Below, one piece after another: positions 18,299 through 44,973 of a DNA stretch of 64,000 nucleotides. Position 1 is the first letter of the stretch, and every line of letters starts with the position of its first letter. The DNA is from Mesocentrotus franciscanus (lineage: Eukaryota > Echinodermata > Echinoidea > Camarodonta > Strongylocentrotidae). The notes beneath the pieces were generated by a model. The model ran no database searches. It was not told where the DNA came from and saw nothing but the letters and a program-made list of their open reading frames with translations. The stretch lies in the NCBI GenBank assembly GCA_037976565.1, contig CP137673.1, forward strand, positions 7,961,202 through 8,025,201. Reading direction: 5' to 3'. A program made the translations under genes and the position numbers.

Positions 18299-18830
18299 AG
18301 TATCCTTAAAAAAACCTCAAAAATGATCGATAAACCACCGATGAATATAGTGTGGTTTTACAGCAAATACCAATTGTGTTATTCAGAAATGCATGCCTCC
18401 ATTCCAACCATTGAATTTCACGAAAATTTACCCATTGATTGTAACGATCTTACATCAGCCGAAAGGCCAACATTATTTGTCATTGACGATTTGATGGATG
18501 CTGCCGCCTACGACAAGAGGGTAGCTGCTTTATTTACAAAGGGTTGTCACCATAAGAACGTTAGTGTCGTTTATATAACTCAAAATTTATTTCACCGTGG
18601 TAAGGAGTCGAGGATCATTTCCCTCAAAACACAATATTATTGCCTGTTCAAAAATGGTAGGGATAAATTGCAAATAACGTGTCATGGAAAACATGGCGTA
18701 CTAAGTTTTTTCAAGAAGCTTATAACGATGGTACGAAAAGTAAATAGGGTTATTTGTTTGTGGATCTCAAACCGACACACCCGAGGACTTTACTCAACAA
18801 CGCATACATTTCAAAAGTATAAAATATCAA
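18299..18830 (+). pseudogene. FtsK/HerA-type packaging ATPase relic fused to PolB end
   Basis: The open frame from 18215 begins as PolB (FTTALACLKLYK) and becomes ATPase from about 18299. Walker B is present (TLFVIDDLMDAA), as is the downstream ITQNLFHRGKESRIISLKTQ block typical of Polinton/adintovirus packaging ATPases. The Walker A loop and everything before it have been deleted, together with the small ORFs that separate PolB from ATPase in the 57-64 kb copy. After ~18690 the frame shifts, but the homologous C-terminus (EAYNDGT-type segment) can still be followed. It cannot hydrolyse ATP as it stands. The family's role is packaging genome into capsids. Confidence 0.85.
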
Positions 18831-18848
18831 CGAACAGTCTATGGGGTC

Positions 18849-19151
18849 TTGACGAGTGCGGACACATGCCGTGCAAAGGAATTCCTCAAGACTGCGGACA
18901 GAGGTCTCATAGATGCCATCTGCGAGTGTGTCATCAACGTGCTTCGCAGAAATGTCAAACTCTCTTCTGTTCACAAACGTTCACTGGGCAAGCACAAACG
19001 TCATCTTCTCAAATTAGCAGACTGGAAGAGATCTCTAAAATAACGACAACAAATCGTCACTCCGGGAGGAGGTTTCTTCATTCCTCTTCCTTCCAGACTG
19101 GTGGGTCCCGTCTTGGGTGCTCTTTCGAACATTGTCGCCATTGGTAAATAG
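18849..19151 (+). pseudogene. pX-like small basic protein, one in-frame stop
   Basis: About 100 codons, with the same plan as 62781-63094: an N-terminal helix with an ICECVINVL segment, a basic middle (KHKRHLLKLADWKR), then a glycine-rich hydrophobic tail (GGGFFIPLPSRL and GPVLGALSNI). A single TAA (19041-19043) interrupts an otherwise open frame. No clean ATG precedes the frame, so the start may be damaged. Position after the ATPase matches the 63-kb copy. In adintovirus-like elements, proteins of this shape have been compared with adenovirus core peptide pX; condensation of packaged DNA is a reasonable inference. Confidence 0.72.
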
Positions 19152-20194: not shown

Positions 20195-20827
20195 ATGGAC
20201 GCCTTTCCTACTGAAACCGATATTCTCAATGACGGACTAGGTGTTTCTCCTCGATTTTATAGAAAGGGAAAAGCTCCAAAGGAGTTATTCCGTACGTTAC
20301 TTTCCGTTGCAAGAGTAATGCACGTACTTGTAATACTGCTACACCGAGAGTTCTTCTATTTACATTTAAGAACATTTAACAGATTTGGAGAGGAGATTGT
20401 ATACAGTGGATCTTCTCTTTTCATGGGAGAAGACGAAATGTTTTCTTTTTTGAATGGTCTAGAGGAGATTGATAACCAGCTACACAGCTACGATGGCCAT
20501 GCTGGGGCTAGCTGCAGTATTGAAGTTGATACTTTCGGTAAATTCGATGAGCCAGACCGCTATAAAAATTTATCAACCAAATATGAAAGGACATCCTTAT
20601 ATGTAGAAACCGGTGTCGTGGGAGGTAAACAGTTCGTGGACATACGGCAGGTAATTGAGTACCACGGTAGAAGCTACAATACCTCCAATGGTATGTGTCT
20701 GTATGTAGATGCCTGGACAAAACTTGTACATCTACACGGTGAAGTCATGGACCGTATAAGGGAGGAACGTGATTTAGATGTTTCTGACGATGAGTTTCAC
20801 CACTTGCTATGGGTTGTACGATCTTAG
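20195..20827 (+). CDS. PC4-like protein A, copy 1 (3' end frameshifted)
   Basis: 210 codons from the ATG shared with the copy at 35343; the longer frame upstream is not conserved, so I use this ATG. The C-terminal half (about residues 130-190) has the PC4 pattern: a strand ending in KQFVDIRQVIEY, a turn with GMCLYVDAW, and a helix. The earlier part (about residues 45-100, YLHLRTFNRFGEEIVYSGSS and the following helix) looks like a second, diverged PC4-type unit. PC4-fold domains bind single-stranded DNA; here a role in replication or transcription of the element is inferred. Compared with the copy at 35343, a small deletion replaces the last ~12 residues after DDEFHHL. The two copies are otherwise very similar. 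Confidence 0.72.
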   Translation: MDAFPTETDILNDGLGVSPRFYRKGKAPKELFRTLLSVARVMHVLVILLHREFFYLHLRTFNRFGEEIVYSGSSLFMGEDEMFSFLNGLEEIDNQLHSYDGHAGASCSIEVDTFGKFDEPDRYKNLSTKYERTSLYVETGVVGGKQFVDIRQVIEYHGRSYNTSNGMCLYVDAWTKLVHLHGEVMDRIREERDLDVSDDEFHHLLWVVRS

Positions 20828-21015
20828 CAGCAGTACTGGGCCCCTTGGGCAGTTTTTAATCCGGGGTATTTATCCATCTTAATCTTTCTTAATCCTTCCA
20901 TAAAACAATAGGGAAGAGGAAATGAAATTTAATGAGGTATTTCCGGTCAGGAAGTGTGTTAATTAATGCAGGTAGTTTTTTACATGGGAAAGGGGGGCAT
21001 CTGGGTCATAAAACT

Positions 21016-21210
21016 CGAATTATGAGGGTCTTTCCTCTGGAGGAAGTGTTTACATCATGGAGTCATAATCATGGGAGAGGTCTGGGGATGGACGTGTTAC
21101 TGGTAGGACGGGCAATGACCAAATGACCAAAACAATGGGCCTGTCCCAGTTATGTTGCTTGTACTTAGGTACGTATCAGACCAATGAGAATGCGAGGATC
21201 CTTCTTGTGG
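21016..21210 (+). promoter_or_regulatory. Putative shared regulatory/terminal block
   Basis: Clearly related to 57055-57237. Common strings include CTGGAGGAAGT, GATGGACGTGT, GACCAAATGACCAAA and GACCAATGAGAATGCGAGGA. Here it precedes PC4-like B; at 57 kb it precedes PolB. It may be a promoter or an element-terminal sequence. Confidence 0.6.
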
Positions 21211-21260
21211 GAGTGACGTCACCACTGACGCCAGAAGGCCTACCGGGACACATCTTGGCA

Positions 21261-21794
21261 ATGAAGGTATGTGCTTTTGCCGTATGGTTTATTTATTTAT
21301 TTATTTATCTAAGTATTTTGAATAAATATATTAGTATACATGTATAGCTTAATTGAATGCATGGGGGGTGAGTGGATGGGAGGGTTACATGAAGGTCTTA
21401 CATCGTGGTAGCATGCATAATGATACTCATTTTTGTCTTTTATTCACAATAGGATCTGAACAGCGAGGGTAAAGAAAATACATACAAGGTGCGTGAAGAG
21501 GCAGGTTGTCATCATAGTCATGAAGAAAATTTTGAATTGTTTGAATTTGAATCGGGGTCAGAACCATTTCATTTGGGCGGGCAACGTTATGCGGTGGTAA
21601 AAAAATACAGGGGTGTCACATACGTTGCTATTCGGGAATATTACAAGGACAAAAAGAGTCAAAATACTCCAAATAGGATGTTACCGGGAATCAGGGGAAT
21701 CAATCTCACGGCAGACAACTGGTGGCAAATGACAAAATCCATCATGAGCATCAGTGATGCAGTCCGTGCCAAAATCAAGGCAGACAAAGACTAG
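21261..21794 (+). CDS. PC4-like protein B, two exons
   Basis: I propose exon 1 as ATG AAG (21261-21266) with GTATGT donor, a 186-bp intron, and exon 2 from 21453 after a CACAATAG acceptor. The frame then runs open for 114 codons. The C-terminal domain fits the PC4 fold very well: HLGGQRYAVVKKYRGVTYV, IREYY, a loop, GINLTADNW, then a helix ending SISDAVRAKI. The N-terminus is acidic (EEAGCHHSHEENFELFEFE). PC4 proteins are single-strand DNA-binding coactivators. The second copy of this gene lies at 44640-44973 on the other strand with a matching acceptor. The acidic gene follows immediately in both places. A start inside exon 2 (21489) uses no ATG, which is why I favour the spliced model. Confidence 0.7.
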
Positions 21795-21949
21795 TTTGGC
21801 TTTTCATTTTCATTTTCAACAAAATTTAATGAATAATAATAATAAAAAAAAGAAAGAAAAAAAAATGTAAAAAATATATATATATAGATATATATATATA
21901 TATACATATTGGCACTCTTTGCACGCTTGCTCTCTCACCCGCACCTTAG
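21795..21949. repeat. (TA)n run between PC4-B and the acidic gene
   Basis: Short spacer with an A-rich stretch and TA dinucleotides at about 21875-21905, followed by a pyrimidine-rich tract and a CCTTAG splice acceptor at 21948-21949. Confidence 0.8.
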
Positions 21950-23810
21950 GACGCCATCTTTCAACTGGAGCAAGAGTTGGAAAACACATGCCCCTTCGAG
22001 CCTACACCTAGCGTGACAGCGCCATCCCCTAGCTGCTGGGCACCAAGAAGAGAGCTGGAAAGACCAAATCATGCAGGCATGGACACCATTAAAGGCCAGG
22101 TTCATTGATTTTGAAATCGACTGAATTTGGTATCATTGTAATCAGAACATTACACTGAGTAAAACTATCACATTTGTGTAACTTGTAAATTTGTGCGAAA
22201 ATTATAAAAATTGATTAAACTTGACGAAATATCACCCCACTCGAGACCCGAAACATCGTAAGTCAGCTGATTTTTGAGTGACGTAGCACAATGAACAATT
22301 AATACAATGGGCCGCTCACCTGATCGGTGCGCGATGCAGTTTGCGTGCAATTCACATGTATATTGCATTGACTCTTGAGGACCGTACCCATTCTTACCCA
22401 ACGTTGTTTACCTTCATCAAAGTCACCCTGAAAATATCGATATGGACGAAAACATACTTGATTTGAGTTTTGAGGAGATAGAAGAAGGAAGTACCTCGGA
22501 CAGCGACAACGACAATGGAGATTTGGGAGATCTAGACCTAGAAGAAGATCTGGAAGATTTTGCCGAAGTCGATGGACAAGCACAAGCTGTCGGGCAGCCG
22601 CAGTCGCTGTGTATCTACATGAGCCCGCATATCACAGCCAGGCCAGCCGGCCGGCGCTTGATCGAGCTAGCTGTGAATCGCGAACCGGACTGATCTAAGT
22701 CTTCTCGACTTCCACTTTCCCCATTTATCTATCAAAAATCTAAACTAATCGGCCTAATCAGACATTTTCGTAATGAATATTTGGACAATTATATGTAAAC
22801 TTGTCGCATATTTTGCCTCAGAAGAGTCGTTAGTTCAGCATGCAAAATGTCCTAGGCACTCCCAGATCCGACACATACACGCTGAGCTGCCCTCAGAATA
22901 TGTGATTATTTTCCGATTTTTATGGTCAAATGTGACGGTAAATAACATAAAAATCGAATACACATTTGTAGAAAGTATTATTTATTCAGTGTATCTCATT
23001 CAAAGTGCCTAAAATAAAGGAAATATCACAACTGGCGGTAAATATACAAACAACGTTAACCCATATCTAAAACTTGCAATGGGTATCCAACATTGTCCCG
23101 AATGTGTGATTGTAGGTTGTTCATAATGTGACGTCATTTTATCGCATGTAAATAACGCCGTCATTTCACTTTGTGAGTGGGTTTTGGAAAGGGTATCAAA
23201 ATTGCAATTAATTTATTCCTCACAATAGTGAGGGCTTTAAAAGTACTTTAGTCATTTTGTTAATGTTCTCAGCAATCTGTAGAGGTGTGATTTGCCCTTT
23301 TTCCAAATTTCAATGAACCTGGCCTTTAAGAAAGTCCTCAGGTTTGATGACGACGACGACGACGTCATCCTTATTCCAGACGATGAGGAGGAGGAGGCTG
23401 TGGAAGAAGGAGAGATCATCTCGGTGGTGCAGCCATCTCAGAGGAGGGATATCAGCGACCAACTGCCCGTGGCTCCAGTCCTGATGGCTGTGAAGGCGTT
23501 ATCAGCTAGGATTCATACCCTGGTTGTCAAGGGATGCCGGGGATGTCAGGACAAACAGCCAGGGCAGGAAGCCCACCTGGAATGCCTGTATCAGGAATGG
23601 CACGAGAAGGTGGACAAACACTTCATCGGGGCCATCAACCGCCTCAACGAAAAAGAATTTTTGGATTTTTTACCGGCCGTCTACAACATATCCATCATGT
23701 TCGACGATGAAATGGACGAAGCCGTGGCCGAGGCGGTCGGATTCTTCCACTTTGACTTTCAAAACAACGACGTACGGGAATTTATAAAAACAAAGATGAT
23801 GAAGCAGTAA
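21950..23810 (+). pseudogene. Acidic CxxC/H/C protein gene, split by a transposon
   Basis: Part 1 (21950-22092) begins at a CCTTAG acceptor and encodes an IFQLEQELE helix. Part 2 (23336-23810) encodes a run of aspartates and glutamates (DDDDDDVILIPDDEEEE, EEGEIISV), then MAVKALSARIHTLVVKGC, GCQDKQPGQEAHLECL, a WHEKVDKHF helix and a hydrophobic C-terminus (LPAVYNISIMF). Cysteines and a histidine spaced C-x2-C, H, C suggest a metal site. A 1243-bp TTAA transposon sits between the parts; without it and one TTAA the frame stays open. The homologue on the minus strand (43847-44496) confirms the join. The family is unnamed to me. An acidic N-terminus suggests a nuclear regulatory protein (inference). 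Confidence 0.75.
22093..23335. mobile_element. TTAA-type DNA transposon inserted in the acidic gene
   Basis: TTAA at 22089-22092 and 23336-23339 flank 1243 bp with 16-bp perfect terminal inverted repeats (AGGCCAGGTTCATTGA). The ends differ from those of the 387-bp MITE at 13333 but share the AG start and TTAA use, which fits Kolobok-like or piggyBac-like groups. An acidic open frame (22442-22693) has no recognisable transposase motif, so the element is probably non-autonomous. Confidence 0.9.
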
Positions 23811-24150
23811 TGTGTGCTTCTCAGTTGTGTGAGGACTGTCACGAAACGTACAACGATCCCCTCACGCATATTAAGTGTTGTTGTAAATGCCCAGAATGAC
23901 ATTTCTTATGAAACGATCTTATGAAACGCTGTTTTCAGCTACACAGTGTAACCCTGCATAAAAAACTCACAGCCTGCCAAAGAAAATACAAATGTGACAA
24001 ATGCGAAAAGGTGCTCGACAGCGATGTAATAGGGTGTGATCCCGCTAATCATAAATGTTCGAATATATTTTGTAGAATCTGTAAAGAGGTTGTCGACGGC
24101 AGGAATCATGCGTGCTTCATGAAAGTAACATCCAATAGCCCTTACTACTA
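23811..24150 (+). pseudogene. PolB zinc-finger fragment leading into the tandem array
   Basis: Begins just after the acidic gene stop with CEDCHETYND and CCCKCPE, then KCDKCEKVLD, HKCSNIFCRICKEV and HACFMK. These are the two N-terminal zinc-finger blocks of the PolB family. The spacer between them (around 23900-23945) is of the type seen in the 37-38 kb array and unlike the following three units. Frameshifted and incomplete. Confidence 0.8.
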
Positions 24151-24225
24151 GGTTAAGAGTGCCAAGGAAACCTCAAGACCGCGGCCTATCGAAAAGTAGA
24201 GGCCGACAAGAAAGCCGAGGAAGAA

Positions 24226-24552
24226 ATGGAATACGACGATGATGAAGAGGACTGCGATGAGGACATCGCGAACAGAAGGCACGAAAAGGGTGAAATGAAA
24301 TACCTCATCGGCGTATACCTCGAGTACCAAGAGGAACCAGACTACGAACCGGACCATTCATCGTTTAGCATCGAGTACCGTGAAAGGTATGGGGAGCATA
24401 GCGACGAGGACATCGAGGACGTCGTGTATGACCGGGAGGACAGCGACGTAGAACACGGCCACGAGGACATCGAGGATGTAGAAGCCCCCGAGGAGTTCCC
24501 GGATACCGACGACCGCAATGAGTACGACAAGTACTTTAATGTGCAATGGTAA
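24226..24552 (+). CDS. Acidic ORF of array unit 1
   Basis: An open frame of 108 codons, very rich in Asp and Glu: EYDDDEEDCDEDI, KGEMKYLIGVYLEYQEE, then DEDIEDVVYDREDSD and an end at EYFNVQW. In frame upstream the reading continues towards the array joint, so the true start is uncertain. The same module ends the chimeric ORF at 19169-19849. It resembles no domain I can name. Opposite-strand open frames here are mirror effects of the biased composition. Either a fragment of a separate acidic gene or a tail of a fused product. Confidence 0.5.
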   Translation: MEYDDDEEDCDEDIANRRHEKGEMKYLIGVYLEYQEEPDYEPDHSSFSIEYRERYGEHSDEDIEDVVYDREDSDVEHGHEDIEDVEAPEEFPDTDDRNEYDKYFNVQW

Positions 24553-25248
24553 TAATAAAACATGGACCAAAAATAAACAAGACTGCGCACCAACCAAACA
24601 GTTTATGAGAATGGCTCGCGAACTTCACGCTCGAGCGAATGTTGAAGAGGGTGTAGTTGACTCGTGCCAGTACGCTGCTTTTCAAGCTGTGATAGCTCCA
24701 GAGTACAGGCTTATGATATACAGAGGTAGACGTAAGGAGGCATTGATCTATGCAGGACCTCCGGAAGGTATTAAATCCATTCACCTTTATCTGTCTGGGT
24801 CCCATTATAACGTCATCACCAATCCCTCTGCTTTTTTGTGTGTCTCAGTTGTGTGAGGACTGTCACGAAACGTACAACGATCCCCTCACGCATAAGTGTT
24901 GTTGTAAATGCCCAGATTGTTATGCAACAGATTGTGATAGCGGTGCGTTTCGTGACCCTGTATAACCAGGTGTAACCCTGCATAAAAACTCACAGCCTGC
25001 CAAAGAAAATACAAATGTGACAAATGCGAAAAGGTGCTCGACAGCGATGTAATAGGGTGTGATCCCGCTAATCATAAATGTTCGAATATATTTTGTAGAA
25101 TCTGTAAAGAGGTTGTCGACGGCAGGAATCATGCGTGCTTCATGAAAGTAACATCCAATAGCCCTTACTACTAGGTTAAGAGTGCCAAGGAAACCTCAAG
25201 ACCGCGGCCTATCGAAAAGTAGAGGCCGACAAGAAAGCCGAGGAAGAA

Positions 25249-25575
25249 ATGGAATACGACGATGATGAAGAGGACTGCGATGAGGACATCGTGAACAGAA
25301 GGCACGAAAAGGGTGAAATGAAATACCTCATCGGCGTATACCTCGAGTACCAAGAGGAACAAGACTACGAATCGGACCATTCATCGTTTAGCATCCAGTA
25401 CCGTGAAAGGTATGGGGAGCATAGCGACGAGGACATCGAGGACGTCGTGTATGACCGGGAGGACAGCGACGTAGAACATGGCCACGAGGACATCGAGGAT
25501 GTAGAAGCCCCCGAGGAGTTCCCGGATACCGACGACCGCAATGAGTACGACGAGTACTTTAATGTGCAATGGTAA
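25249..25575 (+). CDS. Acidic ORF of array unit 2
   Basis: Same 108-codon frame as unit 1, with a handful of substitutions (for example Asn-to-Asp near the end giving EYDEYFNVQW). Keeping full length in two neighbouring copies is compatible with recent duplication and does not by itself show selection. Confidence 0.5.
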   Translation: MEYDDDEEDCDEDIVNRRHEKGEMKYLIGVYLEYQEEQDYESDHSSFSIQYRERYGEHSDEDIEDVVYDREDSDVEHGHEDIEDVEAPEEFPDTDDRNEYDEYFNVQW

Positions 25576-26272
25576 TAATAAAACATGGACCAAAAATAAA
25601 CAAGACCGCGCACCAACCAAACAGTTTATGAGAATGGCTCGCGAACTTCACGCTCGAGCGAATGTTGAAGAGGGTGTAGTTGACTCGTGCCAGTGCGCTG
25701 CTTTTCAAGCTGTGATAGCTCCAGAGTACAGGCTTATGATATACAGAGGTAGACGTAAGGAGGCACTGATCTATGCAGGACCTCCGGAAGGTATTAAATC
25801 CATTTACCTTTATCTGTCTGGGTCCCATTATAACGTCATCACCAATCCCTCTGCTTTTTTGTGTGTCTCAGTTGTGTGAGGACTGCCACGAAACGTACAA
25901 CGATCTCCTCGCGCATAAGTGTTGTTGTAAATGCCCAGATTGTTATGCAACAGATTGTGATAGCGGTACGTTTCGTGACCCTGTATAACCAGGTGTAACC
26001 CTGCATAAAAAACTCACAGCCTGCCAAAGAAAATACAAATGTGACAAATGCGAAAAGGTGCTCGACAGCGATGTAATAGGGTGTGATCCCGCTAATCATA
26101 AATGTTCGAATATATTTTGTAGAATCTGTAAAGAGGTTGTCGACGGCAGGAATCATGCGTGCTTCATGAAAGTAACATCCAATAGCCCTTACTACTAGGT
26201 TAAGAGTGCCAAGGAAACCTCAAGACCGCGGCCTATCGAAAAGTAGAGTCCGACAAGAAAGCCGAGGAAGAA

Positions 26273-26595
26273 ATGGAATACGACGATGATGAAGAGGACT
26301 GCGATGAGGACATCGTGAACAGAAGGCACGAAAAGGGTGAAATGAAATACCTCATCGGCGTATACCTCGAGTACCAAGAGGAACCAGACTACGAACCGGA
26401 CCATTCATCGTTTAGCATCGAGTACCGTGAAAGGTATGGGGAGCATAGCGACGAGGACATCGAGGACGTCGTGTATGACCGGAGGACAGCGACGTAGAAC
26501 ATGGCCACGAGGACATCGAGGATGTAGAAGCCCCGAGGAGTTCCCGGATACCGGCGACCGCAATGAGTACGACGAGTACTTTAATGTGCAATGGT
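26273..26595 (+). pseudogene. Acidic ORF of array unit 3, frameshifted
   Basis: Homologous to units 1 and 2, but small deletions near 26481 and 26533 break the frame, so the reading ends early at 26497. The sequence remains alignable to the common stop. Confidence 0.75.
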
Positions 26596-27219
26596 AATAA
26601 TAAAACATGGACCAAAAATAAACAAGACCGCGCACCAACCAAACAGTTTATGAGAATGGCTCGCGAACTTCACGCTCGAGCGAATGTTGAAGAGGGTGTA
26701 GTTGACTCGTGCCAGTACGCTGCTTTTCAAGCTGTGATAGCTCCAGAGTACAGGCTTATGATATACAGAGGTAGACGTAAGGAGGCATTGATCTATGCAG
26801 GACCTCCGGAAGGTATTAAATCCATTTACCTTTATCTGTCTGGGTCCCATTATAACGTCATCACCAATCCCTCTGCTTTTTTGTGTGTCTCAGTTGTGTG
26901 AGGACTGTCACGAAACGTACAACGATCCCCTCACGCATAAGTGTTGTTGTAAATGCCCAGATTGTTATGCAACAGATTGTGATAGCGGTACATTTCGTGA
27001 CCCTGTATAACCAGGTGTAACCCTGCATAAAAAACTCACAGCCTGCCAAAGAAAATACAAATATGACAAATGCGAAAAGGTGCTCGACATTGATGTAATA
27101 GGGTGTGATCCCGCTAATCATAAATGTTCGAATATATTTTGTAGAATCTGTAAAGAGGTTGTCGACGGCAGGGATCATGCGTGCTTCATGAAAGTAACAT
27201 CCAATAGCCCTTACTACGA

Positions 27220-27515
27220 GGTTACAGATCCCAAGGAAACCTCAAAAACAGTCAAACCGTCCACAAATCTCCCACAAACCAACCACCACAGTCAAGAAGC
27301 TCCTCGGGAAAATGAAGGAGTACCAAAACAAAAAAAGAAATGTACGCAAACCGCGCCAGAAAAGAAAACATAACCTGAAAATTGTACAAAGTACATCTTC
27401 TTTGATTTCGAATGTACTCAGGACACGGGTGTTCACGAACCCAATTTTGTGCATGCATCGTGGGAATGCGAATCGTGTATGGATAAGGATGATTCAGTTT
27501 GTAAGCGCTGCATAT
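27220..27515 (+). pseudogene. PolB linker and first exonuclease motif, truncated
   Basis: The last zinc-finger block reads on through a Lys/Pro-rich linker into IFFDFECTQDTG (about 27385-27430). This contains the DFE of exonuclease motif I, followed by CESC and CKRC. The PolB homology stops near 27515. No polymerase core follows on this strand until the unrelated relic at 29640. Confidence 0.8.
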
Positions 27516-27749
27516 AATCATAATATCACTTTTCCATTGATGCCTGTACAAAATCTTGTAAACAAATGCTTTTTTCTCTGAAGTTACAAAAATGGATTTA
27601 CATGTAGCTCCTTTTGGAATTAAATTTTTGAATTATACATTTTTTAATTATAACTGGTTGAAATAAAGAATTCCATATGAGATGAATTGTATGTTATTGA
27701 GATCTGTTTATGCCTATGTGTGTGTTTTTTGTTGTTGGTATTTTAACAG

Positions 27750-29537
27750 GTAGGAAGCATCCAACAACAAGGGTCGAAAAGGGTGAGGATCCTGAATCTT
27801 GGAGATGGTGACAGCAGTGTAGAAGTGTCTTTGTGGGAGCATCATGCAGATCTGGTAGTTCAGCAACATGATCTTGTATTGCCGTGTGCATTAGAAGTGG
27901 CTGAATTTAGGAATTACAGGAAGGTGGATTCCACTGCGTCGTTTACTTTGGAAGTAAGTTTTGATTGGATATTGAGAAAACTAACAAATGATTAATGTAA
28001 GAAGGCCGTTGGTGGCAGGCTTTATGAACCGTGACCTTTACCCCGCTTTCAGGTAAGCAAGGCTTAATTTTTAGTGGTGTTTAAATTGTTATATTTGATA
28101 AAATTGCTGCTATGTTTTGTTCATATCGTGGTACAAACGAATCAGTATAATTATAAGGCATATACATATGTTCAAAGAATTTAATAATTATTACAGAAAG
28201 GTGTCATTTAAGGTGAGAAAGTTGTTACATAATGTTAAGAGGGTGTGACTAATCAATGTACATGTAGATTACACGTAGATGAATTGAATGCGTAGGCTAT
28301 GCCTGTACATGAACGTGTAGAATGCCTTTGTGTGCACGGTCCATTGGGCCTTGGCGTATGACTATTGTAGTCATGAATTTGGGCGCTCGTGAATTTGTAC
28401 TAGGTTTTGGTGTAGTGAAACATGATTAACATACATGTCGAAGAATTCTGATCTATTATCATCCAGTTTTACACTTTGGGCATTTGCAATGTCTCAATGA
28501 TTCAAATGTTTTGGGAAAACACTGATTATCTTCTTTGTCATAATTCTGAAAGATGTTTCTTTGTTCATTTTGGTAATTGATAACGATCTATGACCAATTT
28601 TATCACAGTGCTTTACGTGTCCAGACAGAATAAGGCAATAAAGAGCACCAACTCAACTCCTCAGGCTGCCATTATCATCTGTATAATGCAAAGTCTGCCC
28701 CCACTCATCCTGGTTATTTCTTACCATTCCCCCCCTACATTAAGGTGTAGATTATTCTGAATGAATTCAAAGTGAATTGTGCATCCATTTGTATTATATA
28801 ATTGAAATGTTGATTGAATTTGTTATTATATATGTTGGAAGAACAGAAAAAGTATGTGAAATTGTGGTTTTGTCAGGCTGTTTAATAGGCAAGGAATAAA
28901 TGGGAGATTAAGGGGTGTTTAATTGGTAATACATGTTTTTGTTATGATAGTACACAGTACAAGATGTTCAACAGTGAGCTAATTGATAGTGTAGGCGTAA
29001 GTAACAGGAAGTTTAGAAGTAATGGTAAATTTTGAGGAGTGGAAGTCATTCATACTTCATAGGCAAATGAATTTTAAAGAATTGGGGCCCCGTTGATTTT
29101 TCAGTGAGAATATGGCTAATTTAACCAATTTTAACTCAATTTATTTTTTAAACAGGAATCAAAGAGAAAAGGAAATCTCTCCTTAACCAAAGTCCAACTT
29201 CTGTGTAACCATATCAGCATACACTATGAAGAGCTCTTCGGCAGAGCAGATATACCCCAAGTGAGTTGGAATGTGATTTCATATAAAACTTATTTATATC
29301 AGTTGATAATTAAAGTGATGTTAAGAAAGCATCTAGGAAATTTTCAATTAAGGGGGAGGGGGTGTAAAGTTGTGCAAATAATAGTGTAATTGCAGGGGAG
29401 GGGTTAGATTAAATTTGGCCGAAATGCACTTTAGTTATTAATATTTATATCTGCAGTTGTAGAACTGACCATAGTCTATTTGTGTACTACTTTATGACAG
29501 TTTTTCGTTACAGTTCCAGGCGTTACCCAATCAGTAA
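27750..29537 (+). CDS. Spliced gene fragment with an OB-fold-like region
   Basis: Three exons share phase 0: 27750-27953 (after TTTTAACAG, before GTAAGT), 29156-29260 (after AAACAG, before GTGAGT), and 29514-29537 ending in TAA. The product has the look of an RPA-like OB strand series (KRVRILNLGDGDSSVEVSLW) followed by ESKRKGNLSLTKVQLLCNHI. Upstream exons are not visible; the region before 27750 is PolB debris. The family is widespread in invertebrate genomes in my recollection, but I cannot name it. The last two exons recur intact in the left arm. Confidence 0.5.
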
Positions 29538-29639
29538 TAGGAAGGAACATAGCTGTTCAATAATGTATACCACGACCTGGGATTCCATGGTATGGAAAAA
29601 GTATTATGGGATGTATAGTTACAGAAGAGAATAGGATAT

Positions 29640-31590
29640 TCCCTGATCGTGATCGTGACAGGCATCCGTTGCATAGAAAAGCATCCTAACTGGAATACAA
29701 TTAGGCAAGGGTAAAGAGCAGCGAGTATGCGGTGGACACGTACAGGAAAGCAGGGATTCCAGTCAACACCAAATGCGGAATTGCTGAGATTAAAATTTTT
29801 AGAGTACCGAGCGCATGGCAAAGTACCGTATAGTGTTGTGCTTGTCTCTAGGGAACATTTAGATTTCATCATCTATGCAGGCCCAGAAGATAGAGATCAC
29901 ACCATCTACCTGTACGTGCACGATGGCCACTACAACCTCATCACACATGCACGCAATGAAGGCAAGGTCAGGGTTGCCAAATACAAGGTCGATGGTTATT
30001 GCGATCAAAATAAAACCATCTATGAATTCAATAGCTGTTTTTGGCACGGATGCCTCAAGTGCTGCCTATTCCTTCGATACCGGTACTGACAGTGGGAGAA
30101 GAGGACTCATGAAAACAATGGGAGAGTTGCACCTAGACACCTTGGAGAAGAAAAGGTACGTGCAAACTGCAAACCATCCTCAAAGATTGGCATTACGTCA
30201 CCATGTGGGAATATGACTGGAACGAGGAGGAAAAGACCCTCCCTCGACGCATCAGAGAGATGCATCCTAATCCAGTCCCACTGGACCCCCGTGCATCCTT
30301 TTACAGTGGACGTACTACTAAAAGCTGCTTACTCTACAAATGCAAGGAGGGAAAAAAAATCAAGTACATAGACTTCACATCGCTCTATCCAAGCATCAAT
30401 AAATATGGATCGTATCCCCTTGGCCACCCCAGAGTCATTACCTACCATTTCAATGACGTGTCGGCTTATTACGGTCTCATCAGGTGCAAGGTCTTACCCC
30501 CAAGACCTTTTCCATCCTGTCCTTCCCATCAAAGTGAATGGGAAACTCCTATTCCCTCTGTGTTGCACTTGTGTGGAAAACTATCAACAATCGCCTAGCA
30601 AACATACCGAAAAGGAAAGGATGCTTCGAAGTACCTGGGCAAGAGCAATCCAAAAGGGGTATAGGATATTAGAAATCGAATCCGTCTGGCACTTTTGCGA
30701 CAAATCAAAATACAACGAGGAAGGCAATCGCCCAGTTGTGGATACAGGTCTGTTTATGTATTACATCAACACATTCCTGAAAATCAAGCAGGAGGCATTG
30801 GGATGGCCAGACTGGTGTCACACAGAGGAAGATAAAGCCGAGTACATCGCCGACTATCACAAACATGAATGGATTGAACTGGAACCAGAAAAGATCAAGA
30901 AAAACAAGGGTTTACAGTCACTCAGCAAACTTTAGCTCAATTCATTCTGGGGTAGGTTTGGGATGAGAAATAATCTCCCTGAGACCGAGATCGTCTTTGA
31001 CCCTGCTCGATTATACAAGCTCCGACATCGGATGAAATCAAGATCAATGACGTCAATTTTGTCAATGATAATGTAGTTGAGGTTCGATCTGTCAAGAAGG
31101 ATGATTTTGAAAAAACGAGTTCCAAGGCAAACATCGTGGTTGCTGCCTTCATGACGGCTCAAGCAAGAATAAAATTGTTTGTGTTAGAAGACCGGTTAGG
31201 GATTGTGTACTCTACTACGATACAGACAGTATCGGTACGTTGAAAGATCCAACATGCCTGGAGAATGGTGTCCTCCACTCGACGACCATCTGGGAGAACT
31301 GACAGATGAAATAGATGGGAAGTACATCACATCCTTCATCTCAGGAGGCCCTAAAAACTATGCCTACAAATTAAACACCCACGAGACAATGTGCAAAGTA
31401 AAAGGCATCACATTAAACTACAGTAATTCACCGGTGATAAACTATGAGACCATGTAACACAAGGTCATAAAGTAGGGACCGATCGTCACCAACCCCACCA
31501 GATCACCCATGTAAACAAAAGGCAACATATTGAAACCCAGGTGAGTCATAAAGACTACAGGGTAGTTTATGTCAAAGATGACTTTTACCA
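29640..31590 (+). pseudogene. Polinton-type PolB relic, right-arm copy, internally deleted
   Basis: The N-terminal module (IEKHPNW-like, then IIYAGPEDRDHTIYLYVHD near 29868-29925) is joined directly to the pre-palm block (HARNEGKVRVAKYKVDGYCD, CFWHGC). The zinc fingers and all three exonuclease motifs are missing. Motif A DFTSLYP is at 30371-30391, a TAG at 30933-30935 replaces the codon before motif B (NSFWGRFGMR), and motif C YYDTDS lies at 31213-31230 in a shifted frame. The C-terminal SGGPKNYAY block ends near 31450. At least four frameshifts. Closest in gene order to the 57-61 kb PolB. Confidence 0.92.
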
Positions 31591-32190
31591 TCCCCTATAG
31601 GTACGTGACTGCAAATTGATTGTCCCATACCATGCGTATTTCACTTTTATTACTCCGTCACTCTACTCAATAAATAACTCGTCCGGAAATTGTCAAACTA
31701 GAAGCACGTTTTCTCCGGCACTGCACTTCCCTCTAATTGCATTGCAGCAGAGACCTAAAACGTGGATAGCTAGGTATCCTAGCGTTTTTCCTCACAAATA
31801 TCGCTTGTTTTGCATACATTTACACCAAACATCAGCTCGGTTCACCAACCTCATCCTACGTGGCCTCTAACTTTGAAGCGACATCTCTCTCTCCTTTGAA
31901 CAAGAATCAGCATTCATTACAGAGGGTTCAAATTTAGTGAAATTTAATTATGGGTTCGCAACAATATCCAAGTACAGGGTAAACCTAATGTTACTTTATC
32001 AGAAGTGTGTTGTAAGAATATATAGGGTATGTACTTAAGTTTAAGTAGAATTATGTTATGTATTATGTCTTGCGGTATGCCTTCATTAATCTAAAGACTT
32101 CATTATTTTTGTCATTTGTCGTGGGTGGTGTGTTAAATTGAATTGAATTGAATTGAATTGAGGGTTGAAACTTTGGAGACTGTTGTCGCC
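31591..32190. other. Non-coding arm sequence
   Basis: Mirror of 403-1005. In the 57-64 kb element this interval would hold the small membrane and basic ORFs; I cannot recognise them here. Confidence 0.5.
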
Positions 32191-32245
32191 ATGACCATAA
32201 AGTTTGTTCATCCTTTTACCTGCATAGGCCCTACACTACAGGGAG
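32191..32245 (+). pseudogene. ATPase 5' end remnant (right arm)
   Basis: The ATG at 32191 and the following codons match the packaging ATPase start (KFVHPFTC, then GPT). Homology ends at the Walker A loop, just before Merlin-like sequence. Confidence 0.62.
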
Positions 32246-32280
32246 TCAATGTTTTGTAGAGAAAATTGCCTTGCAATTAT

Positions 32281-32770
32281 GTCTATGAAAAACACAAAAC
32301 TAGGAGGACCAGGTAAAATAGTTGAAAGAAAAATTGGCAAACGAAAATATCATTGTGGAAGCTTCGTAGAAGGTCAGTGGGTTTTGGAGGTATAAAACAT
32401 GATTCAAGAAAGAGTTTCGTTGTCGCAGTTGAAGGCAGGAGTTAAAGACCCTATTACCCTTAATAAAAGAGTATATTGAAGAAGGAACAACAATAATCTC
32501 TGACTGTTGGAAGGCTTATCACAATTTGCCTCAACATGGATATGTCCATCAAACTGTGAACCATTCTATTGAATTCAGAAGGATACCATACTAACACCAT
32601 AGAAGGACATTGGAGGCATGTTAAAGCCCTTACCGGCTTACAGTGACAAAAAGAGTCATCAGCCATCATACCTAGGTGAATTCTTATACAGATATCAATA
32701 TCCGAAAGAGAATCTGTTTTTACATTTCATCCGGGATGTTGCAATTGTGTATAATCCATATTCATAAGTG
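32281..32770 (+). pseudogene. Merlin-type transposase relic
   Basis: Frames in order give GGPGKIVE, GKRKYHCG, VEGQWVLE, a stop, TTIISDCWKAY (second catalytic Asp), VNHSIEF, NTIEGHWRHVKALTG (third catalytic Glu), and a C-terminal YLGEFLYRYQYPKEN typical of animal copies. The expected first Asp region after KIVE is deleted. Frameshifts occur near 32440 and 32590. Terminal inverted repeats are not evident. The superfamily is cut-and-paste; this copy is dead. Confidence 0.85.
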
Positions 32771-33424
32771 TACACTCCAAAATGACATTACTTTTGTAAT
32801 AACAAATACAAACATAAACAGAGCTGCAAAAAGAAGTAATCACCTATACTTTGTTGAATGAATGAGATGAATGAGATGAATGAGATGAATGAGTTGAATG
32901 AATCTTTGTTAGGGTTGCATTCACAAGGCCCATTCATTCTGTGGTGAATGATTCAGTTTTGTTCATCATAGAGTGCTCTTTCTGGTCAAGCCACTGAGGT
33001 GGAACAAGACTAAGGGCTCCTTAGGTCTGTGATGCTTATGAAACTTGGTGAAACTGAAGAGGTGACAAAGATTTGTTATGAGTCAATTTTATTTTTCATC
33101 TTTGAGTGTCTGATGAAGAAGAAGAGAAGGTGATTAAGTGTTTTAAAACACAGTCAAAATACCAGGGACATCGTCACTTTGATGAAAAAAAATAGCCAAG
33201 AACAGACATGCTTGGATTAGGACTTCTAAGGCAAATGTGCTGGAGATACTCGACAGATATCCCCCTACAGCCTGACCAGATGACATCATGACCTTCGTCA
33301 GTGAAGACACACCTCGCAAGCGGCGCGCCCAATTCACCCACATGTATTTTTAATAATAAACATTTAACTGTGTGAGAAACTCATGCCAGTCAACCGGAGC
33401 AGTATGTATGTACGTATAGTCCCA
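32771..33424. other. Non-coding stretch with a short minisatellite
   Basis: A 9-10-bp repeat of the form ATGAATGAG runs at about 32860-32905. The rest shows no gene. Confidence 0.7.
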
Positions 33425-33625
33425 AAATATGATTTATGATATTATTGATTAATATGAATCGATAATCAATAATCAATAAATATGGAATACATCGATAATC
33501 AATAAATATGAAATATGGATCGATAAATATGGATCAACAAATATGGATTAATAAATATAAATTATGGGTCGATAGATATAAACTATAGGTCGATAGATAT
33601 GAATGATGGGTCGATAGATATGAAG
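33425..33625. repeat. Degenerate AT-rich tandem repeat
   Basis: Repeated (A/G)TCGATA(A/G)ATAT-type words separated by 15-25 bp, giving a loose tandem array. Position just upstream of a promoter-like region may or may not matter. Confidence 0.65.
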
Positions 33626-33774
33626 GTATGACGCAAGGGTGGAAGGGTGCATAGACTCGTACAGGGTAAACATGTACGTCATCATCACGTCACAGTCTGA
33701 ATAGAAGATATCGCATCATCTATTAAATATAGAACAACCACGTCACGGTACCGAAATAGGAGCGCTAAAAAACG

Positions 33775-33840
33775 TATAAAATACCTCGGACACGTTCCAA
33801 AAGAAATAGTAATCGGACACGTTCCAAAAGAACTAGTATT
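33775..33840 (+). promoter_or_regulatory. Core promoter candidate of PC4-like C with a direct repeat
   Basis: TATAAAATA at 33775-33783 is followed by two copies of CGGACACGTTCCAAAAGAA (from about 33787 and 33813, 26 bp apart). The first ATG of the downstream ORF is at 33871, a normal distance for a TATA promoter. Confidence 0.5.
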
Positions 33841-33870
33841 ATACAGTTCATCTTACAACACGTCAGCAAC

Positions 33871-34354
33871 ATGTACAGTTACTACAGCCATAGTACAAAG
33901 ACCAATACCGAAGATATGGAAGGTGTACCTCATGAGAATGAACACGGATTTTCATCGTCCGAACCCTTATTCATAGACGACGGCAAATCAAATCTACAGC
34001 CAGGAAAAAATGGCCGACCAAGGCAGACACGTGGGAGAGAAAATCATGAAGGGACGTCAGGCGGACAGCTACAAGAAGGATGTAGACGGAGTTGGTACAG
34101 GCGTGACATCCAACGATGTGAAAGCCACAACCGTTGCCAAGTTACCAATCTGCATGAAGGATGGACGCGCCAAATGTCGCCGTGCAAAAATTCAGAGGTC
34201 AAGTCTATGTCGACGTTCGAGATTACTACGAGTCAAATGGACAGTACTTTCCGACAAAAAAAGGCATCACGTTATCTGTGAGGGAATTCAAAGCAGTCCT
34301 GATGATTTCTAAAAACATCAACCGTGCAATCTACAGTGGAGAAAACCCGTAGTA
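33871..34354 (+). pseudogene. PC4-like protein C, frameshifted or spliced
   Basis: Three overlapping frames each carry part of a plausible protein. An acidic/serine N-terminus starts at 33871 (EHGFSSSEPLFIDD), a basic middle frame spans 34010-34200, and the PC4-type domain lies in the third frame at 34161-34352. That domain reads VAVQKFRGQVYVDVRDYY, then KKGITLSVREF, then a short helix. It is the simplest PC4 domain in the window. Either two small frameshifts or unseen short introns separate the parts. It lies 5' of a second PC4-like gene (35343) and a PolB N-terminus on the same strand. Confidence 0.65.
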
Positions 34355-34631
34355 GCATCGAGACAAAAAACCTCGGATATGTAATGGAGTGAATATGAAT
34401 TTGAAAAAAGATAATAAAGTCGTCACCCTTTTAGTAAAATCCAACATGTTTATTCTACTTTGTTGTGTTTGTTGTCTTAACGTCAAGGTGTAACGTGTAT
34501 TGACCCTGAAAGACACAAACGAGAGAGAGAGAGAGATTAACGCTTGATTAATTGTGACGTGAGTAAAATTAAAAGTTTGTAATACATAGAGGGAATAGAT
34601 GAAGAAATAGAGAGAGAAAGAGAGGGGGATT
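34355..34631. other. Non-coding spacer
   Basis: Contains a GAGA-rich patch (about 34522-34536 and 34606-34626) and no gene. Confidence 0.6.
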
Positions 34632-35342
34632 TCACTAGTACCTTAAAGAAGAGGAGGATTATAGGACAAAGACCTTTTACATGTATTAACGGATAAGGTT
34701 GGAACACTAAAATGCAATTACGGCGACCTGTGAATGGTGTCAGGTTCACGCACAACTTCTAGGGGTCGCCCTCATTTGTTCACCCGCTTTGTAGATGTAT
34801 TAGTAAGATAATCCCTACGTAATACTCGCTGTTATAATCAAAACTTTTGCTAAGAGGGGTTTCACTAGTACCTTAAAGAAGAGGTGGATTATAGTTACGG
34901 TGACCTGTAACAGGTGTCAGGTTCACGTAAAACTTCTAGGGTCGCCCTTGTTTGTTCACCCACTTTGTATATGTATTTAAGATAATCCCTTCCTTATACT
35001 CGCTGTTATAATTAAAAATTTTGCTAAGAGGCGGTGTTTCAATAGTACCTTAAAGAAGAGGAGGATTATAGGACATAGGACGTAAATGAAATTACGACGG
35101 CCTGTGACAGGTGTCTGGTTCACGCACAACTTCTAGGGGTCGCCTTTGTTTGTTCACCCGCTTTGTACATGTATTAGTAAGATAATCCCTTTGTAATACT
35201 CGTTGTTATAGAGAATTTATCCTTTTAACACCCAAGTACAATTATCCTTACCAGAACCAGATGTTAGTGTCACACGTTTGAAGTTTAATCTTAATTGTGA
35301 AATCCGTTGCGAGGGTCTGTATATAATTGTCTACAATTAATC
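34632..35342 (+). promoter_or_regulatory. Three tandem upstream repeat units plus TATA of PC4-like A copy 2
   Basis: Units of roughly 180-230 bp begin with AGTACCTTAAAGAAGAGG at about 34637, 34866 and 35043. Each contains GGTTCACG, a TAGGG(G)TCGCC box and TTTGTTCACC. A TATATAA occurs at 35320-35326, only 17 bp before the ATG, because 43 bp present in the other copy are missing. Repeated boxes upstream of a viral-type gene could be promoter or origin elements (inference). Confidence 0.65.
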
Positions 35343-36008
35343 ATGGACGCCTTTCCTACTGAAACCGATATTCTCAATGACGGACTAGGTGTTTCTCCTC
35401 GATTTTATAGAGGGAAAAGCTCCAAAGGAGCTATTCCGTACAGTACTTTCGTTGCAAGAGGAATGCAGGTACTTGTAATACTGCTACACCGAGAGTTCTT
35501 CTATTTACATTTAAGAACATTTAACAGATTTGGAGAGAAGATTGTATACAGTGGATCTTCTCTTTTCATGGGAGAAGACGAAATGTTTTCTTTTTTGAAT
35601 GGTCTCGAGGAGATTGATAACCAGCTACACAGCTACGATGGCCATGCTGGGGCTAGCTGCAGTATTGAAGTTGATACTTTCGGTAAATTCGATGAGCCAG
35701 ACCGCTATAAAAATTCATCAACCAAATATGAAAGGACATCCTTATATGTAGAAACCGATGTCGTGGGAGGTAAACAATTTGTGGACATACGGCAGGTAAT
35801 AAAGTACCAGGGTAGAAGCTACAATACCTCCAATGGTATGTGTCTGTATGTAGATGCCTGGACAAAACTTGTAAATCTACACTGTGAAATCATGGACCGT
35901 ATAAGGGAGGAACGTGATTTAGATGTTTCTGACGATGAGTTTCACCACTTGGACTATGGGTTGTACGATCTTGTATTGTTACAGCAAGGCCTGATTGAGG
36001 GCAAATAA
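35343..36008 (+). CDS. PC4-like protein A, copy 2 (full length)
   Basis: 221 codons from the ATG to TAA. Highly similar to 20195-20827, with an undamaged C-terminus (HHLDYGLYDLVLLQQGLIEG). Two diverged PC4-type units can be seen: residues about 40-95 (YLHLRTFNRFGEKIVYSGSS plus helix) and about 130-185 (KQFVDIRQVIKYQGRS, GMCLYVDAW plus helix). Single-strand nucleic-acid binding is the family role. It is the most complete accessory gene in the window. It lies 180 bp before the start of a PolB N-terminus. Confidence 0.75.
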   Translation: MDAFPTETDILNDGLGVSPRFYRGKSSKGAIPYSTFVARGMQVLVILLHREFFYLHLRTFNRFGEKIVYSGSSLFMGEDEMFSFLNGLEEIDNQLHSYDGHAGASCSIEVDTFGKFDEPDRYKNSSTKYERTSLYVETDVVGGKQFVDIRQVIKYQGRSYNTSNGMCLYVDAWTKLVNLHCEIMDRIREERDLDVSDDEFHHLDYGLYDLVLLQQGLIEGK

Positions 36009-36189
36009 CGGCGATACACGATATACCCACCCCAAGAGAGAGTTGTTAGACCCTAGGGTATAGCTATATGTCTCTGATCTCTATTTTTGTTTTAAATAAA
36101 CTACGTTTAAATCAGTTACCCTTAAATAATTTTTTTATTGGCATCTTTAAATTTCTTTTAAATTTTTGTTAAGAAGAAAAGAAGAACCA

Positions 36190-37815
36190 TGTCCGGCCCC
36201 AAGCATCAACACCAGCACAAGACGGGTAAGTGAACAAACTATTTCTAACCATTCAAGAGATGTGGGTCATGCCTTAGGACAGCGCATTGTAGCAAACAGG
36301 CGTGAAGTTCGCTCCGTCACATAGTCACACCCTGCAAGGACCTAGCTCGCTATAATGGTTCAGGTGGGAGGGTGTAACAGGGGTTCATCGTTCCACCTCC
36401 CCATGTCAATATTTACATATCCTCTGACGAGGAAGATTTCGATGTACAGCAAGGTGGACAGAAACGCAAACATAATATCCCATCCGTAGTGACTCCCCCA
36501 AAGAAAATCTCACACTCTACCTCTACACCTTCCCAACTTACTCCTCCCCTCCTCTTGATACCGTTCAAACGGGTAAGAATAAAAATAAAACAAAAAACAG
36601 GGGTCCACCTTGCTCTACAACGGAGAGTCAAAATCCCGTTCAAATTTTGAAATACCTGGCGATGAGCCATTTCAGGACTTGCCCACGCACCTTCCCTCTA
36701 CCCCAAACTGGGAGTTCATTGGGCAACGGATTTCTAAACGGTTTGTGAGTAGAGAGGTATGGTACGACCATCAAAGTCAACTCCATAACGCCACCACGAT
36801 ATCCGAAGTTCTCGATTACCTCCGAACATCTTTGGAAGAAATCAAGGATATCGTGTTGCGCGGCACTTCACCCGTGACTATGTGAGACTCATTCTTGTTT
36901 CTGCGCAGTTAAATGTACCCGTCTCCTTTCCTGGGCGACTGTGGAACATTTCGACATAAGCGCAATTTTGGATAGGATTGAAGAGGTTTTAAATGGCAAT
37001 CAAATTTTTTCATAGATCTTGGATTCACGATACGGTTATATCATATCGTGAATCCTGCGGTTGGCGCGCGTAAGTTTGATGGACTCCCGAACAACTGGCT
37101 GCGCTTAAGCGATCAATCATCACAATACCACCCTCCGATGATAATCTTTGTTTCGTAAAAGCACTCGTGATCGCCATGTTGCACTCTAAAAATGACAAAA
37201 GATACAGAACATGGACCAAAAATAAACAAGACCGCGCGCCAACCAAACAGTTTATGAGAATGGCTCACAAACTTCACACTCGGCGAATGTTGAAGAGGGT
37301 ATTGTTGACTCGCGCCAGTACGCTGCTTTTCAAGCTGTGATAGCTCCAGAGTACAGGCTTATGGTATACAGAGGGAGACGTAAGGAGGCATTGATATATG
37401 CAGGACCTCCGGAAGGTAAAGCCATCTATCTGTATCTGTCTGGGTCCCATTACAACTTCATAACCAATCCCTCTGCTTTTCTGTGTGCTTCTCAGTTGTG
37501 TGAGGACTGTCACGAAACGTACAACGATCCCCTCATGCATAAGTGTTGTTGTAAATGCCCAGAATGACATTTCTTATGAAGCGATCTTATGAAGCTGTTT
37601 TCAGCTACACAGTGTAACCCTGCATAAAAAACTCACAGCCTGCTAAAGAAAATACAAATGTGACAAATGCGAAAAGGTGCTCGACTGCGATGTAATAGGG
37701 TGTGATCCCGCTAATCATAAATGTTCAAATATATTTTGTAGAATCTGTAAAGAGGTTGTCGATGGCAGGAATCATCGTGCTTCATGAAAGTAACATCCAA
37801 TAGCCCTTACTACTA
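36190..37815 (+). pseudogene. PolB N-terminal relic (first unit of the 37-kb array)
   Basis: ATG at 36190 (MSGPKHQHQHKTG) runs into GTAAGTG, as at 14915. It is followed by the low-complexity segment, the acidic patch (SSDEED), an LRTSLEEIKDIVLRGTSP module near 36825-36870, the YAGPPEG module near 37400, and both zinc-finger blocks up to 37815. Frameshifts are frequent (for example within the RDYVRL module near 36871). It lacks exonuclease and polymerase parts. Confidence 0.8.
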
Positions 37816-44639: not shown

Positions 44640-44973
44640 CAACTTTTCGGTGTTCTCTTCTTCTTTCACAAAGGCCCTGCATGACATTGTCATTTATTTG
44701 AAAAGCGGCAGCCTTCAACTTTCACCAATTGTCGAACGTTAAATTAATACCCTTCAAACCCGGTAGCATTTTGTGACTCCCATTTTTCTTGTCGTAGTCT
44801 CTGATGTTTATGTATGGAACACCCCTAATTTTTTTTCACGGCAAAACGCTTACCACCCACAAATGGTAAGGTTTCGACCCCAACTCAAATTCACACGTTT
44901 CAAAACTCTCTTCAGTACTGTAGTGACAACCAGCCTCTTCCCATTCCGTTTTGATGTGCGACCCCTCCTTGGC
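44640..44973 (-). pseudogene. PC4-like protein B, second copy
   Basis: After a TTTTTGTTAG acceptor the minus strand encodes EEAGCHYSTEESFETCEFE, then a damaged strand, KKIRGVPYINIRDYD, then MLPGLKGINLTFDNW and a final helix. It aligns over its length with 21453-21794. Two in-frame stops (replacing a residue before KKIRG and another after DNW) or small indels inactivate it. Order (PC4-B then acidic gene) and the acceptor position match the other copy. Confidence 0.75.

What the first reader, a model, noticed from the sequence alone, without database searches (positions are those of the whole stretch)
20195..36008. A Polinton family carrying three distinct PC4-like single-strand DNA-binding proteins
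PC4-type domains occur in three unlike genes: A (20195 and 35343), B (21261 and 44640-44973) and C (33871). They differ in N-terminal extensions but sit next to Polinton genes each time. A protein-primed polymerase creates displaced single strands, so a set of PC4-fold proteins could serve as the element's own ssDNA-binding or late-transcription factors. I do not know of this being described as a Polinton gene set.
Basis: partly seen in the sequence, partly recalled or inferred. Interest (0 to 1): 0.78.

Follow-up and report, generated by a model that had tools for sequence, protein, structure and literature searches.

The report
PC4-type genes in sea-urchin Polintons
Virus-like mobile elements in what looks like a sea-urchin genome carry their own genes of a single-strand-DNA-binding protein family (PC4), one kind in one element lineage and up to two kinds in another, which may supply the DNA-coating protein these self-replicating elements were not known to have.

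Summary
The PC4 observation holds. B and C are clear PC4 (PF02229) proteins. A falls below Pfam's cut-off, but its C-terminal half matches a PC4 profile at about twice the best of 200 shuffles; its N-terminal half may be a second repeat. "One Polinton family with three PC4 genes" is not right: the whole genome shows two lineages. Lineage 1 has C, then A, at the PolB end: C and A lie together between terminal inverted repeats (TIRs) on three chromosomes, though only one of these keeps a full PolB, and another locus has C without A. Lineage 2 has B, then X, beside the TIR at the integrase end (one TIR-bounded element with a 6-bp target duplication). A and B are neighbours in the window because two elements meet there. 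None of four TIR-bounded elements holds all three. PC4 lies within 25 kb of 29 of 36 capsid-like gene clusters. B is under purifying selection (three unsaturated pairs, dN/dS 0.09-0.23). Paper searches found no PC4-Polinton link. Most likely role, inferred and untested: the elements' own ssDNA-binding proteins for protein-primed replication; rival: RNA polymerase II coactivators. New variant of a known kind.

The parts
15071..19147 (+). lineage-1 PolB (broken) followed by A32-type packaging ATPase
   Evidence: PF03175 E=3.9e-8 for 17542-17880; the ATPase ORF 18215-19147 is under Pfam's cut-off itself (E=0.022) but matches the C20 ATPase piecewise at 56-83%, which hits PF04665
20195..20827 (+). 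gene A, copy 1 (diverged PC4-type; possibly two repeats)
   Evidence: 64% to S. purpuratus XP_011673901.1; PC4 profile match; open frame
21022..21199 (.). remnant of lineage-2 terminal inverted repeat, between A and B
   Evidence: 74% over 185 nt to the C17 TIR, E=3e-23
21141..21267 (+). likely 3' part of B exon 1, ending AAG|GTATGT (inferred; partly overlaps the TIR remnant)
   Evidence: sequence read directly; a frame ending in similar residues precedes the domain exon in the C9 copy L047
21453..21794 (+). gene B exon 2 with PC4 domain
   Evidence: PF02229 E=2.4e-10; 33 matches in own genome
21950..23810 (+). gene X (unknown; acidic, Cys/His motif), downstream of B; first part inferred
   Evidence: ORF 23283-23807 similar to 43850-44482 and to C17 and C8 copies next to B; no Pfam hit
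23811..27514 (+). tandem units of about 1,023 nt of lineage-1 PolB N-terminal sequence mixed with A C-terminal-tail sequence
33410..33556 (.). remnant of lineage-1 terminal inverted repeat, upstream of C
   Evidence: 74% over 148 nt to the C20 TIR, E=1e-17
33871..34352 (+). gene C (frameshifted here); PC4 domain in 34161-34352
   Evidence: PF02229 E=4.8e-16; open frame with a similar start at C20
35343..36008 (+). gene A, copy 2
36166..38760 (+). lineage-1 PolB N-terminal part (broken, partly duplicated), downstream of A; assembly gap follows
43850..44482 (-). gene X', broken
44725..44973 (-). gene B', broken PC4
   Evidence: PF02229 E=7.5e-9 for 44725-44835; two TGA
56901..57479 (.). lineage-2 terminal inverted repeat
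   Evidence: 94% over 584 nt to C17 TIR
57932..62556 (+). lineage-2 PolB and A32-type ATPase
   Evidence: PF03175 E=4.4e-10, PF04665 E=1.6e-6; nearly identical PolB pieces at C17

Best explanation
These are element-owned PC4-family genes in two lineages of sea-urchin Polinton. Lineage 1 has C plus, in part of it, a second, diverged protein A at the PolB end. Lineage 2 has B at the integrase end. Shown: the domains, their place between terminal repeats, the repeated order C then A (with PolB next where PolB survives), and purifying selection on B. Inferred: B and C bind single-stranded DNA as PC4 dimers and coat the strand displaced by the protein-primed polymerase, the job done by DBP in adenovirus and p5 in phi29 (recalled). 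A, with a PC4-like half, perhaps a second one, and an acidic C-terminal tail in its S. purpuratus relative, would be an accessory or partner ssDNA-binding protein.
For: PF02229 above cut-off for B and C. PDB sequence hits to human PC4 and MoSub1. C and A lie between TIRs at C20:22799580-22825243, C16:2029847-2044429 and C5:21604494-21618300. B lies between TIRs at C17:14636003-14651188, with AG...CT ends and GGTAAG on both flanks. TIR sequence lies in 7 of the 8 best B loci, L029-L036; not L036 (weak in L029, L034 and L035). 29 of 36 capsid-like clusters lie within 25 kb of a PC4 cluster (24 of 36 within 15 kb); 30 of 48 PC4 clusters lie near a capsid-like one, against 0.11 expected by chance. 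dN/dS of B in the three pairs with dS below 1: 0.11 (window/C18), 0.23 (C9/C17), 0.09 (C14/C21). C and A sit on the PolB strand directly upstream of PolB at C20 and, with PolB remnants, at C16 and in the window. Best Foldseek rows for the poor A model: MoSub1 and PURA repeats I-II, E 0.014-0.05.
Against: B is not in the PolB unit in lineage 2; it heads the strand with X, INT and the capsid-like genes. In A the aromatic residues of PC4's DNA-binding face (F77, W89 in human numbering, recalled) are not kept. Both AlphaFold models are poor: pLDDT 42 for A, 43 for B; no Foldseek row for either reaches E 0.001. Of the three lineage-1 TIR-bounded elements only C20 keeps a full PolB frame and an unbroken A; C16 has PolB remnants and a broken A, and no PolB piece was found in C5. 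B and the capsid-like gene are broken in the C17 element. Seven of 36 capsid-like clusters have no PC4 within 25 kb, and 18 of 48 PC4 clusters have no capsid-like gene there. No binding data exist.
Confidence: 0.5

Rival explanations
1. The PC4 proteins are transcription coactivators: the elements are transcribed by host RNA polymerase II and bring their own SUB1/PC4 to open promoters or re-initiate on element genes.
For: PC4/SUB1 is a known RNA polymerase II cofactor (recalled; start of the abstract of PMC9600219 seen in the listing). No RNA polymerase was recognised among the element ORFs read, though none was searched for. B and C keep the canonical domain. B heads the capsid/integrase strand in lineage 2.
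Against: C and A stand next to PolB in lineage 1. Nothing tested separates the two roles.
Confidence: 0.3
2. The PC4 genes serve packaging, integration or genome compaction in the virion rather than replication.
For: In lineage 2 the order is INT-X-B on one strand.
Against: No virion data; in lineage 1 the genes are in the PolB block.
Confidence: 0.1
3. The PC4 genes are captured host SUB1 cargo without an element function.
For: A host-like SUB1 exon exists at C10:8309042, with a possible splice donor after KKG, so a donor gene may be at hand.
Against: Repeated positions in several elements, low dN/dS for B, and C copies only 29-39% identical over their whole length yet still open point to long maintenance.
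Confidence: 0.05
4. All three genes belong to one element family.
For: A and B are neighbours in the window.
Against: A lineage-2 TIR remnant lies between them. At C17 the A-like sequence is outside the TIR. None of 4 TIR-bounded elements has all three.
Confidence: 0.03

Closest known systems
Polinton/Maverick elements (polintoviruses, adintovirus-like)
   Same: PolB, A32-type ATPase, C5 protease, integrase (with chromodomain in lineage 1), TIRs, 6-bp target duplication
   Different: PC4-family genes as part of the gene set; no paper in the library holds both 'polinton' and 'PC4'
Human PC4/SUB1 and MoSub1
   Same: Pfam PF02229 domain over nearly its full length in B and C
   Different: Element genes carry their own N-terminal parts (C: MYSYYN or similar start; B: an exon upstream of the domain, inferred); the PC4 domain of the open B and C frames lies in one exon, unlike the host-like exon at C10:8309042
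Pur-alpha repeats I-II / Whirly proteins
   Same: A's (poor) model aligns to PURA I-II over 105-122 residues
Adenovirus DBP, phage phi29 p5, PRD1 P12 (recalled)
   Same: Proposed role: ssDNA-binding partner of a protein-primed polymerase
   Different: Role here is inferred; no similarity to these proteins was tested
PC4-type proteins of viruses of bacteria (T5 homologue 4bg7; viral contigs)
   Same: PC4-type domain in a virus genome
   Different: The ten ORFs printed are 72-93 aa long with no long N-terminal part. Of 9 ORFs from 5 of the 12 contigs, 5 match PHROGs families and 4 match none; tail families appear only in L054. Polinton genes were not searched for on these contigs

Membership tests
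PC4/SUB1 (PF02229): B and C | Pfam domain above the curated cut-off | tested here: met
   B 40.2 bits, C 58.4 (window) and 57.2 (C20), cut-off 25
PC4/SUB1 (PF02229): A | Pfam domain above the curated cut-off | tested here: not met
   16.8 and 16.6 bits; no hit for P0001 or C20 A. So A is called PC4-like, not a member
PC4-like fold: A | profile-level similarity to PC4 | tested here: met
   hhalign score 41.2 (C-half alone 37.7), maxima of 200 shuffles each 20.0 and 19.2; N-half 17.8, 99th percentile 17.0, maximum 18.5: borderline. Shallow alignments: 4 A sequences, 11 PC4 sequences that include B and C
PC4/SUB1 (PF02229) | four strands then a helix | tested here: inconclusive
   topology seen in low-confidence models of B and A; Foldseek top rows are human PC4 for B and MoSub1 for A, none at E 0.001 or better
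PC4/SUB1 (PF02229) | ssDNA binding as a dimer | not testable with these tools
   needs protein
Polinton/Maverick | TIRs and 6-bp target duplication | tested here: met
   C17: TIR 93% over 327 nt, GGTAAG on both flanks; C16: TIR 93% over 646 nt, ATGGTG one base from each end; C20: TIR 90% over 651 nt and C5: TIR 81% over 404 nt, no clear target duplication at the BLAST ends
Polinton/Maverick | PolB, integrase, A32 ATPase, C5 protease | tested here: met
   C20: PF03175 E=3.7e-44, rve E=4e-11 with Chromo E=6e-6, PF04665 E=6e-7, PF00770 E=3e-5; C17: rve E=1e-15, PolB and ATPase by tblastn; the C17 protease is named from recalled motifs
[quoted passage not shown]
   No Pfam hit and no PDB relative (best row E 0.004 over 23 residues of a designed protein); the 447-aa ORF L016:918-2258 is called capsid-like from recalled motifs and its place next to the protease
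Host SUB1 | intron inside the PC4 domain | tested here: inconclusive
   the open B and C frames aligned read through the domain; the host-like exon at C10:8309042 ends after KKG at a possible GT donor, but the rest of that gene was not found or fetched

The most novel reading that the evidence does not exclude
Sea-urchin Polintons carry their own dedicated single-strand DNA-binding system built on the PC4 fold: a canonical PC4 acquired or relocated separately in two lineages (B at the integrase end, C at the PolB end), plus in part of one lineage a second protein, A, in which two PC4/PUR-like halves and an acidic tail are joined in one chain. This would fill the missing-SSB slot of a protein-primed replicon and make animal Polintons a functional counterpart of the adenovirus E2 block (DBP plus polymerase).
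Probability: 0.4. Interest if true: 0.75.

Novelty: new variant of a known kind. Interest (0 to 1): 0.58.

Why it matters
Protein-primed strand displacement exposes long single strands, and other such replicons encode an SSB (recalled: adenovirus, phi29, PRD1). No SSB has, to my knowledge, been named for Polintons, and the paper searches here found no PC4-Polinton link. A PC4 gene that recurs at a fixed place in each of two lineages gives a testable candidate. It also shows a eukaryotic transcription cofactor family inside virus-like elements. The two lineages place the gene at opposite ends, a natural experiment on whether PC4 serves replication or late expression.
Full report
What the window is. 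The window is G000:C8:7961202-8025201 of a 773-Mb, 21-contig genome. The window holds several broken Polinton pieces on both strands: PolB, A32-type ATPase and others.

Lineage 1. At C20:22799580-22825243, between inverted repeats of 90% over 651 nt, lie an unknown ORF, integrase with chromodomain, a capsid-like block, C5 protease, a retroelement insertion (called Gypsy-like from its ORFs, recalled), then on the other strand two small genes, ATPase, a 1,553-aa PolB frame, A (286-aa frame) and C. C is the gene next to the repeat. C and A stand in the same order between TIRs at C16 (TIR 93% over 646 nt; PolB largely deleted, ATPase kept; A frameshifted) and at C5 (TIR 81% over 404 nt; no PolB or ATPase piece found; A with one TAG). 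In the window, a TIR remnant (33410-33556), C, A2 and PolB N-terminal sequence follow one another. At C13:102.6-106.5 kb, C is followed by PolB with no A frame between, so A is not universal. Searches with window A and with C20 A find A on C8, C16, C5, C20 and C17 (and weak rows elsewhere) but not beside the C-type copies on C4, C21, C2, C13 or C18; these searches score only the best candidates.

Lineage 2. At C17:14636003-14651188 the inverted repeats are 93% over 327 nt, the ends read AG...CT, and GGTAAG flanks both sides. Inside are PolB and ATPase on one strand, and on the other protease and capsid-like genes, integrase, X and B, with B next to the repeat. The C17 copies of B and of the capsid-like gene are broken. 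Frames of both without stops occur together at C9 and C14. TIR sequence lies in 7 of the 8 best B loci, L029-L036, strong in L030-L033 and weak in L029, L034 and L035. The A-like sequence at C17:14653190 is outside the TIR. In the window a TIR remnant at 21022-21199 lies between A1 and B, so I read their adjacency as a junction of two elements.

Association in the whole genome. PF02229 finds 41 stretches over the cut-off and B finds 33, together 48 clusters. A query with the capsid-like ORF, independent of PC4, finds 79 rows in 36 clusters. 29 of 36 of these lie within 25 kb of a PC4 cluster (24 of 36 within 15 kb), and 30 of 48 PC4 clusters within 25 kb of a capsid-like one (26 of 48 within 15 kb); 0.11 would be expected by chance. 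One of the 29 (C8:8026379) is counted only through the broken B' in the window, about 20 kb away, which is not the same element; segmental duplicates are counted apart, and all rows are lower bounds. Seven capsid-like clusters have no PC4 within 25 kb; three of these (C8:8733448, 8774637, 9013862) are single short fragments. In the two that I sampled, and beyond the capsid-like gene of the element that begins at window 56901, the stretch read holds unrelated, LINE-like or tandem-array sequence, so presence or absence of PC4 there is undecided. A host-like SUB1 exon lies at C10:8309042 and ends at an apparent splice donor.

Selection. NG86 values for six open B exon-2 frames give dN/dS of 0.09-0.33 in 13 of 15 pairs; two have undefined dS and ten more have dS above 1. 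The three pairs with dS below 1 give 0.11, 0.23 and 0.09. For C, five of six pairs are saturated.

Mechanism. Established by others and recalled: PC4 binds single-stranded DNA as a dimer and helps RNA polymerase II; protein-primed polymerases displace a strand; adenovirus and phi29 encode SSBs. Inferred here: B and C coat the displaced strand. The C-A-PolB block in lineage 1 fits a replication unit. The place of B at the head of the integrase/capsid strand in lineage 2 fits that less well and leaves a transcription role open. In A the aromatic residues that face DNA in PC4 (recalled numbering F77, W89) are replaced while the arginine at 86 is kept, so A may be a partner rather than a binder in its own right.

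Literature. No paper in the library holds both 'polinton' and 'PC4' (0 papers). Wider searches: Polinton, Maverick, adintovirus, p15 coactivator, PF02229 and SSB terms (30 of 162 listed, none with the p15 or PF02229 term); PC4 phrases with Polinton, virophage or Nucleocytoviricota (20 of 208 listed, none with a PC4 phrase); Maverick, Polinton, coactivator, sea urchin (all 10 listed; PMC7786948 holds Polinton, Maverick and coactivator as words, not read); Polinton/Maverick with SUB1, PC4 or SSB terms (15 of 478 listed, none with both Polinton and PC4). Only passages found by term were seen in PMC11071308, PMC11071296, PMC10120064, PMC8097293, PMC4028283, PMC4981718 and PMC6431247: PC4 has 0 occurrences in the first six and was not among the terms for the last. 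The founding Polinton paper and the adintovirus paper are not held, so prior mention there or in subscription journals is not excluded.

Verdict. The single-family reading is replaced by two lineages with different PC4 genes. The SSB role is the most likely of the roles considered, at about even odds.

Noticed in passing
window 1-4448 and 28084-32592: Near-perfect inverted duplication (arm pieces 99-100% identical, about 23.7 kb apart) holding PolB copies; mirrored C and A copies continue outside the window start at C8:7957.8-7959.9 kb.
   Followed up: partly
window 21950-23810 and 43850-44482; C17:14648949-14649672; C8:7932749-7933212: Gene X, acidic with a conserved Cys/His stretch, lies downstream of B in these four places; no Pfam hit, function unknown.
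   Followed up: partly
window 23811-27514 and 37208-38700: Tandem units of about 1,008-1,024 nt mixing PolB N-terminal sequence with the acidic C-terminal tail of gene A.
   Followed up: partly
window 5673-7229: Tandem repeat with a period of about 140 nt.
   Followed up: no
window 38761-39260: Run of 500 N, an assembly gap inside Polinton sequence.
   Followed up: no
window 39610-40640: Coding-like stretch resembling a hAT-type transposase end (recalled resemblance; Pfam gave nothing firm for 39610-39978).
   Followed up: no
L038:4213-5220, L015:3-776, L010:927-1568: Unknown gene next to the integrase and TIR in lineage 1 (C20, C16, C5), at the end that B takes in lineage 2.
   Followed up: no
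G000:C2, C8:7648701, C10, C13, C18, C20:15670492: Nine PC4 stretches of equal score (39.5 bits, profile positions 4-36); the one read (C13) is a C-type copy with a frameshift in the domain, so this may be one copy multiplied after it was broken.
   Followed up: partly
G000:C20:11332501-11333800 (L040): A broken C-type PC4 copy directly downstream of LINE-like reverse transcriptase sequence (recalled resemblance).
   Followed up: no
G000:C8:8028501-8034500 (L064): Tandem array with a period of about 1.46 kb carrying a repeated 175-aa frame of unknown kind, just beyond the capsid-like gene of the element that begins at window 56901.
   Followed up: no
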